This document shows, piece after piece, positions 1 through 23,078 of a stretch of DNA of 55,880 nucleotides. Origin of the DNA: Candidatus Gemmiger stercoravium (lineage in GTDB: Bacteria; Bacillota; Clostridia; Oscillospirales; Ruminococcaceae); NCBI GenBank assembly GCA_019119835.1, contig DWWE01000066.1:1-55880 (forward strand), given 5' to 3'. The position numbers and the translations under genes are program-made. A model generated the notes under the pieces. That model did not search any database, was not told the origin of the DNA, and saw only the letters and a list, made by a program, of their open reading frames with translations. Positions within the stretch are counted from its first letter, which is position 1. Each line of letters starts with the position of its first letter.

Positions 1-118
1 CAAAATTTTACGTCAAATCGCGCACTCGTCTCTTCGTTCCTCGCACACAATTTGCCGTAAAATTTCCCTGTCGGTGTCGCCGTCGTCGGCGCATGTCCGC
101 CGACGGCGACGGATTTTA
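1..118 (-). repeat. Two-hairpin dispersed repeat, copy 1 (cut by window edge)
   Basis: This stretch is the reverse complement of the element at 22563-22683, nearly identical apart from a variable 8-nt loop. Hairpin 1 is a near-palindrome at 76-110 with a 10-bp outer stem. Hairpin 2 spans 2-65, with arms AAAATTTTACG and CGTAAAATTT enclosing GC-rich inner arms. Compared with copy 2, hairpin 1 carries a paired C-G in place of T-A, a compensatory change. The small reading frames crossing it look like by-products of the palindromes rather than genes. Confidence 0.85.
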
Positions 119-182
119 TACTTTTTCGACAGTCTGGGGGTGACTAAGAAAGCGGCCCCGGATTTTTTTGAAAGCCCGGCAT

Positions 183-22182: not shown

Positions 22183-22246
22183 AGGCGGACACGCATAAGA
22201 CGCACGACCCCGCTTTTGGCTTATAAATCACTTGGAGGTACAAACT

Positions 22247-22519
22247 ATGACCAAAGTTGAACTGATCGCCGCTGTGGCCGCCAATGCCGGCCTGACCAAG
22301 AAAGATGCCGAGAAGGCTGTCACCGCCACCATCGATGTCATCACCGAAACTCTGCAGAAGGGCGAGAAGGTCTCTCTGGTGGGCTTCGGCACCTTCGAAG
22401 TCCGCGAGCGCAAAGAGCGCCAGGGCCGCAACCCCCAGACCCGCGAGCCCATGACCATTCCGGCTTCCAAGCTGCCTGCGTTCAGCGCCGGCAAGGCTCT
22501 GAAGGACGCCGTGAAGTAA
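22247..22519 (+). CDS. hup: HU-family DNA-binding protein
   Basis: A 90-residue HU histone-like protein that bends and compacts DNA as a dimer. The typical N-terminus [20 protein letters not shown], the core [20 protein letters not shown] and the arm [14 protein letters not shown] with the DNA-intercalating proline are all intact, as is the C-terminal [20 protein letters not shown] lies 7-8 nt before ATG 22247. Codon use is noticeably less GC-extreme than in neighbours (many GCT, CTG and AAG codons), as expected for a highly expressed gene. Its insertion between mazG and rqcP breaks the usual Bacillus order. Confidence 0.97.
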
Positions 22520-22534: not shown

Positions 22535-22556
22535 GCCCGCCGCATTCCGGCGGGCT
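22535..22556 (+). terminator. Stem-loop after hup, first copy of a 22-bp direct repeat
   Basis: GCCCGCCG/CGGCGGGC-type stem with loop CATT lies 15 nt after the hup stop, but the expected T-tract is missing: the stem is followed by CAGATTG. The identical 22-bp stem recurs at 22779-22800, where it is followed by TTTTCTTG. This looks like a terminator split from its T-tract by insertion of the repeat element. Confidence 0.75.
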
Positions 22557-22562
22557 CAGATT

Positions 22563-22683
22563 GTCTAAAATTGTCGCTGTCGGCGGACATGTGCCGACGA
22601 CAGCGACACCGCCAGGGAAATTTTGCGGCAAATTGTGTGCGAGGAGTTTTGCTCCGAGTGCGCGATTTGGCGTAAAATTTTGT
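22563..22683 (+). repeat. Two-hairpin dispersed repeat, copy 2
   Basis: Hairpin 1 at 22573-22607 has a 10-bp stem, GTCGCTGTCG paired with CGACAGCGAC, around a near-palindromic centre. Hairpin 2 at 22618-22680 pairs AAATTTTGCG with CGTAAAATTT through a long imperfect stem, with an inner GGAG/CTCC. The element matches positions 1-118 in inverted orientation, differing mainly in the terminal loop of hairpin 2 and by a compensated pair in hairpin 1. It lies between hup and rqcP, inside a normally compact gene cluster. Confidence 0.88.
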
Positions 22684-22750
22684 CGAAGGGGATACACAAG
22701 GGGAAACAGACGCGTCAGGCAATTGCCGTGCGCGGCTGTTGCCTCTTGTG

Positions 22751-22777
22751 CAGCGTGTCGAGTCCCTCGACACGCTG
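22751..22777 (+). repeat. Perfect 12-bp hairpin beside repeat copy 2
   Basis: CAGCGTGTCGAG and CTCGACACGCTG form a perfect 12-bp stem with a TCC loop. It lies between the two-hairpin repeat and the second stem-loop of the 22-bp direct repeat. There is no T-tract directly after it, so it may be part of the inserted segment rather than an independent terminator. Confidence 0.8.
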
Positions 22778-22778
22778 T

Positions 22779-22808
22779 GCCCGCCGCATTCCGGCGGGCT
22801 TTTCTTGT
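22779..22808 (+). terminator. Intrinsic terminator, second copy of the 22-bp direct repeat
   Basis: The stem at 22779-22800 is identical to 22535-22556 and is followed by TTTTCTTG, a normal terminator tail. It would end transcription of hup and of the inserted segment just before rqcP. Confidence 0.8.
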
Positions 22809-22832: not shown

Positions 22833-23078
22833 ATGCGCCTGGATAAATACCTGAAAGTCAGCCGCCTGATCAAGCGCCGGACCCTCGCCAACGAAGTGGC
22901 GGACGCCGGCCGGGTGCTGGTGGGCGGCAAGCCGGCCAAGGCCAGCTACGCCGTCAAACCCGGCGACATCATCGAAATCACCTTCGGCAACCGCCCGGTC
23001 AAGGTCCGGGTCCTCTCGGTCACCGAGCCGAAAGGCAAGGACGTAGCCCGGGAACTGTACGAAGTCATCGAAAGCTGA
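22833..23078 (+). CDS. rqcP: RqcP (YabO), S4-domain ribosome quality-control factor
   Basis: An 81-residue S4 RNA-binding protein. RqcP proteins bind stalled 50S subunits and work with RqcH in C-terminal alanine tailing of incomplete peptides. The S4 fold is plain: MRLDKYLKVSRLIKRRTLAN, then the GRVLVGGKPAKASYAVKPGD loop and a final beta strand. The length is normal. ATG 22833 has GAAAGGAA 6-7 nt upstream. It opens the conserved rqcP-yabP-yabQ-divIC-yabR order. RqcH itself is not in the window. Confidence 0.93.
   Translation: MRLDKYLKVSRLIKRRTLANEVADAGRVLVGGKPAKASYAVKPGDIIEITFGNRPVKVRVLSVTEPKGKDVARELYEVIES

What the first reader, a model, noticed from the sequence alone, without database searches (positions are those of the whole stretch)
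1..118. Inverted pair of two-hairpin repeats with a compensatory base change
Positions 1-118 and 22563-22683 are near-identical in inverted orientation. Each copy holds two hairpins. In hairpin 1, the stem base pair C-G of copy 1 is T-A in copy 2, and in hairpin 2 an A-T pair becomes a G-T wobble; the least similar part is a terminal loop. This pattern points to selection for structure, in DNA or RNA. It resembles REP/BIME or MITE-type elements moved in trans, but I recognise no named family. A mobile two-hairpin element of this lineage may be undescribed.
Basis: seen in the sequence. Interest (0 to 1): 0.72.

Follow-up and report, generated by a model that had tools for sequence, protein, structure and literature searches.

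The report
Terminator-hopping mini-transposon with a conserved fold
A short DNA repeat with no recognised gene, present in dozens of places in Gemmiger gut bacteria and their relatives, appears to be moved by the enzyme of a known jumping gene into the hairpins that end genes, doubling each hairpin, while its own interior keeps one particular fold by paired mutations, which suggests that the fold itself does something.

Summary
The full element is about 217-235 bp: four hairpins between imperfect ends CAG(N2)TGTCGA(A/G)AA. Insertions lie in stem-loops, many of them gene terminators, and often duplicate the whole stem-loop: 25 of 40 testable Gemmiger-type insertions and 15 of 25 unique rows in other genera. 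Window copy 2 has an identical 21-bp palindrome on both sides, and most relatives examined show the empty site. IS1182-family insertion sequences with similar ends, flanked by identical 39- and 29-bp palindromes, sit in related genera, and one in Gemmiger has matching ends. So it is best read as an IS1182-driven MITE, not a REP/RAYT element. No IS1182 gene was found in the own draft genome. The unusual part is the interior: it covaries strongly (98.7% of cells paired, 220 two-sided cells), folds better on one strand, matched no Rfam family in the searches made, and keeps its architecture in five other genera. Its role is unproven.

The parts
1..136 (+). Copy 1: right-hand part of the element (hairpins 3 and 4 and right end); left part lost at the contig start
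   Evidence: Alignment with 39 other own-genome places; the window is contig C19 from its first base; R1 match 1-110 minus, 119 bits
2..67 (+). Hairpin 3 of copy 1 (AAATTTTACG... stem, conserved TGTGTGC/GTGCGCG wobble block read on the minus strand)
   Evidence: Fold; covariation on A4 helix 2
76..110 (+). Hairpin 4 of copy 1 with conserved loop region GGCGCATGTCCGCC
   Evidence: Fold; covariation on A4 helix 1; same loop in other genera
119..136 (+). Right end; reverse complement of 122-136 is CAGACTGTCGAAAAA, the terminal inverted repeat
   Evidence: Pattern hit C19:122-136 minus, 0 mismatches
22535..22555 (.). Target duplication, copy a: GCCCGCCGCATTCCGGCGGGC (terminator stem-loop)
   Evidence: Identical to 22779-22799
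22556..22778 (-). Copy 2: complete element, 223 bp
   Evidence: R1 22573-22682 plus strand, 117 bits
22751..22777 (-). Hairpin 1 of copy 2, CAGCGTGTCGAG...CTCGACACGCTG, holds the left end
22695..22750 (-). Hairpin 2 of copy 2, CACAAGAGGC...CCCCTTGTG
   Evidence: Sequence; covariation on A3 helices 3-4
22573..22682 (-).
22556..22572 (-). Shortened right end of copy 2 (AATTTTAGACAATCTGA)
22779..22799 (.). Target duplication, copy b; followed by TTTTCTTG, scored as a terminator
22232..22519 (+). Gene upstream of copy 2: HU-type DNA-binding protein (PF00216, 122.5 bits)
22833..23078 (+). Gene downstream of copy 2: S4-domain protein (PF01479, 47.9 bits)

Best explanation
It is a non-autonomous insertion element (MITE) of IS1182 type. 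Inferred mechanism: an IS1182-family DDE transposase made by an IS elsewhere binds the CAG(N2)TGTCGA ends and joins them to the two 5' feet of a stem-loop in the target, often a gene terminator (pathway b of the model drawn for IS1272). Repair then copies the whole stem-loop, so a neighbouring gene keeps its terminator. Shown: ends, multiplicity, stem-loop targets, whole-stem-loop duplications, empty site, IS1182 elements with similar ends and the same kind of duplication. Inferred: mobilisation in trans and the chemistry. The interior (hairpins 2-4) was not seen in the IS1182 elements. The likeliest roles are a transcript that helps the element or its neighbours at 3' ends, or a folded substrate needed for efficient movement; which one is open.
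For: Duplicated stem-loops next to the ends: 25 of 40 full-length unique copies above the 99th percentile of mismatched flank pairs; 21 of these 25 fold better than 95% of shuffles, median 24 nt, range 16-40. Other genera: 18 of 30 rows, 15 of 25 unique rows, 13 of these 15 palindromic at p<0.05. Copy 2: identical 21 bp on both sides. Of 29 relatives' HU-S4 loci, 23 have gaps of 61-97 nt with no element hit against 314 here; the own gap without element and one duplicate would be 70. IS1182 transposases, 389 and 397 bits against cut-off 270, in two full IS of 1562 and 1583 bp flanked by identical 39- and 29-bp palindromes. The four IS ends compared match the better MITE end at 13-15 of 16 and the other at 12-14; the Gemmiger IS (G010) at 14 and 14. 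A second short family with the same ends but another interior in G031: of 9 loci, 6 have both ends and 5 of these 6 a duplicated stem-loop exactly at the ends. Interior: A4, 51 copies, 40 pairs, 98.7% of cells paired, 19 pairs with two-sided change, covariation 0.329 against 0.104 shuffled and 0.025-0.062 slid; full length A3, 43 copies, 71 pairs, 99.4%. Consensus energy minus/plus: -109.0/-66.7, -60.8/-35.6, other genera -64.3/-41.6. G-U to A-C on variable pairs 78:10 and 95:6. No reading frame is stop-free in more than 21 of 43 copies.
Against: No IS1182 gene in the own assembly, and only 6 of 35 genus genomes have a match, 1 over the cut-off; draft genomes from metagenomes often lose multi-copy IS, but that is an argument, not a result. 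15 of 40 full-length copies, and 10 of 25 unique rows in other genera, show no duplication above control. The G-U excess weakens with a plus-derived structure: on A4 29 A-C against 10 G-U read on the plus strand; on A2 29 A-C against 41 G-U, 34 of the 41 in one column. The published IS1182 case with detail, IS1272, replaces its target stem-loop and makes no duplication. Sequences in the alignments are related and the structures were derived from them. No expression data.
Confidence: 0.82

Rival explanations
1. The structured interior is a host-useful 3'-end RNA or terminator module that IS1182-type ends picked up. Copies without hairpin 1 (B-type) sit right behind stop codons in one orientation and are kept by the host.
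For: B-type copies: the upstream gene reads into the copy in 28 of 32, median 5.5 nt after the stop (for those 28); A-type 34 of 51. Of 33 B-type copies with flanks, 6 (three loci) share both flanks with a copy in another genome.
Against: Gene calls are heuristic. Hairpin 4 plus T-run was not scored as a terminator in window copy 1 or 2. The fold is better on the other strand than the one co-transcribed with the upstream gene. In one of the three shared loci the counterpart copy was classed A-type (L181).
Confidence: 0.3
2. The covariation is a by-product: palindromic DNA evolves by hairpin-templated repair or gene conversion between arms, and no fold is selected.
For: The element is palindrome-rich, and template switching can produce two-sided changes (general knowledge).
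Against: Unpaired linker positions are among the invariant columns; five wobble pairs are fixed in 49-51 of 51 copies, with at most 1 copy turned into a Watson-Crick pair, which arm-copying would erase.
Confidence: 0.1
3. REP/BIME-type element moved by a RAYT (Y1 transposase).
For: High copy number, hairpins, intergenic location.
Against: No PF01797 match in the own genome; 19 of 35 genus genomes have one, and several with many element matches (G002, G022, G030) have none. Long target duplications and paired ends.
Confidence: 0.03
4. The partner is an IS30-family IS of the IS1630 kind, which duplicates inverted repeats.
For: IS1630 is titled as targeting and duplicating inverted repeats; four of seven copies flanked by 16-26 bp duplications.
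Against: IS30 matches in 7 of 35 genus genomes; the single own-genome copy has other ends by eye; no element-like end in 7 of 9 IS30 loci checked, lone end-like hits in the other two.
Confidence: 0.03
5. A SINE-like retroelement: the folded RNA is reverse-transcribed into hairpin targets.
For: Single-strand fold, variable-length duplications.
Against: Imperfect inverted ends shared with DDE-type IS and with a second family of another interior.
Confidence: 0.04

Closest known systems
IS1182-family insertion sequences and their MITEs (for example ISMac2 MITEs of Methanosarcina acetivorans, 160 and 169 bp, listed in PMC3852290, one passage seen)
   Same: Ends match IS1182-family elements found here at 12-15 of 16; small, multi-copy; palindromic targets are reported for some IS1182 members (as cited in PMC4923244 and PMC5678879, passages seen).
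   Different: As I read the table columns, the listed ISMac2 MITEs have 4-bp or no direct repeats; here the whole stem-loop is duplicated and a long structured interior is kept.
IS1272 (IS1182 family, Staphylococcus; PMC5678879, abstract and passages seen)
   Same: Targets stem-loops; tandem left ends are reported, and I saw three tandem ends in L288.
   Different: IS1272 replaces the target stem-loop and makes no duplication. The paper's model lists duplication of the stem-loop as pathway b; that is what is seen here.
IS1630 (IS30 family, Mycoplasma fermentans)
   Same: [quoted passage not shown] original paper not held).
   Different: Different transposase family; ends of the IS30 copy in the own genome do not match.
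BOX elements of Streptococcus pneumoniae (PMC3049150, passages seen)
   Same: Modular, structured, intergenic; optional inner modules.
   Different: No sequence comparison made; stem-loop duplication is not mentioned in the passages seen.
REP/BIME with RAYT
   Same: Palindromic intergenic repeats in high copy.
   Different: No Y1 transposase match in the host genome; much longer; target duplication.

Membership tests
IS1182-derived MITE | Terminal inverted repeats shared with an IS1182-family IS | tested here: met
   12-15 of 16 positions against G059, G042 and G010 IS ends
IS1182-derived MITE | Same target rule as the IS | tested here: met
   IS flanked by identical 39- and 29-bp palindromes; MITE 25 of 40 and 15 of 25
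IS1182-derived MITE | Partner IS in the same genome | tested here: not met
   NF033551: no match in the own draft genome; 6 of 35 in the genus, 1 over the cut-off
IS1182-derived MITE | Multi-copy, with empty sites | tested here: met
   40 places at the cap; empty HU-S4 sites
IS1182-derived MITE | No gene of its own | tested here: met
   No frame is stop-free in more than 21 of 43 copies
IS1182-derived MITE | Moved in trans by that transposase | not testable with these tools
   Needs an assay
REP/BIME (RAYT) | Y1 transposase PF01797 in host | tested here: not met
   0 in own genome
IS1630-type IS30 MITE | Ends shared with a host IS30 | tested here: not met
Known RNA family (Rfam 15) | Covariance-model match | tested here: not met
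   Only a tRNA in the window; five sub-threshold matches in five element loci at E<=1, none near its gathering score
IS1272-type replacement | Target stem-loop lost, no duplication | tested here: not met
   Duplicate on both sides in 25 of 40; not excluded for the other 15

The most novel reading that the evidence does not exclude
The element is a structured-RNA satellite of IS1182: a bacterial counterpart of SINEs whose folded single strand, not only its ends, is needed to spread or is put to use by the host at gene ends. It would be a new class of mobile non-coding RNA element found across several genera of gut bacteria.
Probability: 0.25. Interest if true: 0.85.

Novelty: new variant of a known kind. 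Interest (0 to 1): 0.62.

Why it matters
It shows natural cases of whole-stem-loop duplication by IS1182-type ends, a pathway that was drawn as a possibility for IS1272 but not observed there, and offers a way for a mobile element to enter terminators without harming genes. It also gives a clear case of a MITE whose interior looks to be under structural selection across genera, which makes the question whether bacterial MITEs carry working RNA directly testable. It also explains breaks in the draft assembly: 14 of the 40 places lie close to a contig end.

Tried and rejected
RAYT/IS200 partner: rejected. IS30/IS1630 partner: first favoured on recalled literature, then rejected on ends. Partner search among loci held at that time: one pair of ends 0.5-4.5 kb apart (L189), its second end a poor match, not pursued. 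Looser end pattern in complete genomes G004 and G026: no excess over the reversed-pattern control. Viral contigs: 0 matches for two patterns. Salinicola pattern hit L133: 17 bits with R1, taken as chance. Second copy of hairpin 2 behind B-type copies: 8 of 40 at score 11 or more against 7 of 40 in the control, not pursued. Terminator scan: hairpin 4 is not scored as a terminator in the window copies. Plus-derived structures weaken the wobble argument.

Rows dropped. Three of 54 candidates were dropped before A4 was aligned: two reverse-strand self-matches and one with another hairpin-3 module. One of 44 was dropped before A2/A3 for the same module difference. Copy 2 itself is not among the 40; I take its shortened right end to have failed the filter. 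In one search, 60 motif places (overlapping loci counted twice) gave 45 with a left end, 38 with a right end and 30 with both and flanks; five loci appear twice, and two of the 25 unique rows (L372, second row of L363) have doubtful left ends. In one search, 29 of the 34 other genomes were fetched; L220 and L222 gave gaps of 4 and 7 nt and L237, L241 and L248 of 137, 262 and 360 nt without an element hit, unresolved.

Session notes hold errors corrected here: entry 1 gives 27 of 34 genus genomes; the listing is 26 of 34 plus the own genome. Entry 4 gives a reconstructed empty gap of 78; it is 70. Entry 6 gives 185-210 bp for the second family; one search measures 147-194.

Full report
Observation. 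The reverse strand folds far better than the + strand in both copies (z -6.4 and -6.8 against -3.4 and -3.4).

Full anatomy. Aligning 40 own-genome places with flanks shows that the 118 bp are the right half. To the left lie hairpin 1 (CAGCGTGTCGAG...CTCGACACGCTG) and hairpin 2, to the right a tail ending in CTTTTTCGACAGTCTG. The two ends are imperfect inverted repeats. Some copies carry a roughly 120-nt extra module before hairpin 3, two carry about 62 nt in the loop of hairpin 4 (by eye). 14 of the 40 places lie close to a contig end, the window's first base among them.

Spread. 40 places at the scoring cap in the own genome. With the 120-bp query, 26 of 34 other genus members match and 0 of 65 more distant relatives. 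A covariance model built from 51 diverse copies (R1) matched 12 of 197 family genomes, 9 of them outside the genus. One of these, G543, has a contig of the same length as a record of Anaerofilum sp. An201 (inference). The matches in G477, G519, G560, G577, G586 and G590, weak but mostly multi-copy, look like true relatives by anatomy: same hairpin order, same kind of ends, conserved GGC(G/A)CATGTCCGCC in most. Together with G543 these stand for five genera. G454 is weak; the one copy seen in G496 lacks hairpin 1.

Target duplication. Of 269 unique hits, 40 were full length with both flanks; in 25 of 40 the flanks share a direct duplicate above the 99th percentile of mismatched pairs. These are stem-loops: 21 of 25 at p<0.05, 16-40 nt. 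Polarity of the adjoining T- or A-run is balanced (8 right, 7 left, 2 both, 8 unclear). In other genera 18 of 30 rows, 15 of 25 unique, pass (five loci were fetched twice, which probably explains the high control maximum of 24). Many duplicates there are the palindrome end to end. For copy 2 the duplicate is an identical 21-bp palindrome, and the orthologous HU-S4 gap (genes named) is 61-97 nt without an element hit in 23 of 29 relatives, against 314 here (lengths include one base of the start codon). G017 has an insertion of its own next to the S4 gene.

Partner. No convincing pair of ends around a transposase turned up among the loci first held. In G032 seven contigs stop inside CAGCCTGTCGAAAAAGGTCACC, six of them next to a stem-loop, as at a collapsed multi-copy IS. 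That end occurs, with up to one mismatch, in 7 of 394 genomes of the order. In three of the seven (G059, G042 and, truncated, G073) an IS1182-family transposase lies behind it; in the other four the fetched stretch showed none. The two complete IS, 1562 and 1583 bp, are flanked by identical 39- and 29-bp palindromes. In Gemmiger itself, G010 has IS1182 genes (below the family cut-off, cut by contig ends) whose end CAGACTGTCGAGAAACTGG abuts stem-loops in two places. The own genome has no match in the assembly. G031 has a different short family (147-194 bp) with the same ends; of 9 loci 6 have both ends, and 5 of these 6 an exactly abutting stem-loop duplicate. So ends and target rule appear to belong to the transposase, and the interior does not.

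Interior. On the reverse strand 51 copies give 40 pairs with 98.7% of cells paired, 19 pairs with two-sided changes, 220 such cells, none of 500 shuffles as high. 43 full-length copies give 71 pairs at 99.4%. Five wobble pairs are fixed in at least 49 of 51 copies. The consensus fold is better on that strand in three alignments. The structures were derived from these sequences, and relatedness inflates cell counts; with the plus-derived structure the strand bias is smaller on A4 and not seen in the cell totals of A2. No frame is stop-free in more than 21 of 43 copies.

B-type copies. Copies without hairpin 1 lie behind a gene that reads into them in 28 of 32 cases, median 5.5 nt after the stop (heuristic gene calls). 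Six of 33 with flanks, at three loci, share both flanks with a copy in another genome; at one locus the counterpart was classed A-type. That suggests retention by the host, but was not tested further.

Known or new. Stem-loop targeting by IS1182 members is in print, with replacement, not duplication, for IS1272 (PMC5678879, abstract and passages; PMC4923244, passages). Duplication of inverted repeats is in print for IS1630 (title and passages in PMC3317919). IS1182 MITEs are listed in PMC3852290 (one passage). My searches for a Gemmiger or Faecalibacterium repeat of this kind, for IS1182 with MITE and for covarying MITEs listed no title that describes it in the held library; most subscription papers are not held. 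The mobile side is thus a new variant of a known kind; the conserved interior is the open and interesting part.

Noticed in passing
L259-L267 (G031): A second short family of 147-194 bp with another interior (...TTTGTAGGGGGCGGCGTCCTCGACGCC...) uses the same ends and duplicates stem-loops (5 of 6 loci with both ends).
   Followed up: partly
L127, 534-1770 minus (G032 C12): An open frame that joins a reverse-transcriptase-like part to an IS30-like transposase part (by eye); fusion or assembly chimera.
   Followed up: no
L282 near 1501-1540; L287 near 1501-1548: Micro-elements of 40-48 bp that consist of two IS1182-type ends around a small hairpin.
   Followed up: no
L288, from 1501 (G253): Three tandem copies of an IS1182-type end, as reported for IS1272.
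   Followed up: no
L054-L056, L234: A subfamily in G028, G017 and G010 keeps hairpin 4 and, in L234 and L056, the ends, but has another hairpin-3 module.
   Followed up: partly
L028, L061, L066 and L062, L067: Optional inner modules: about 120 nt before hairpin 3, and about 62 nt in the loop of hairpin 4.
   Followed up: partly
L005 and L010: The starts of contigs C85 and C4 look like two halves of one insertion, sharing the same terminator duplicate.
   Followed up: no
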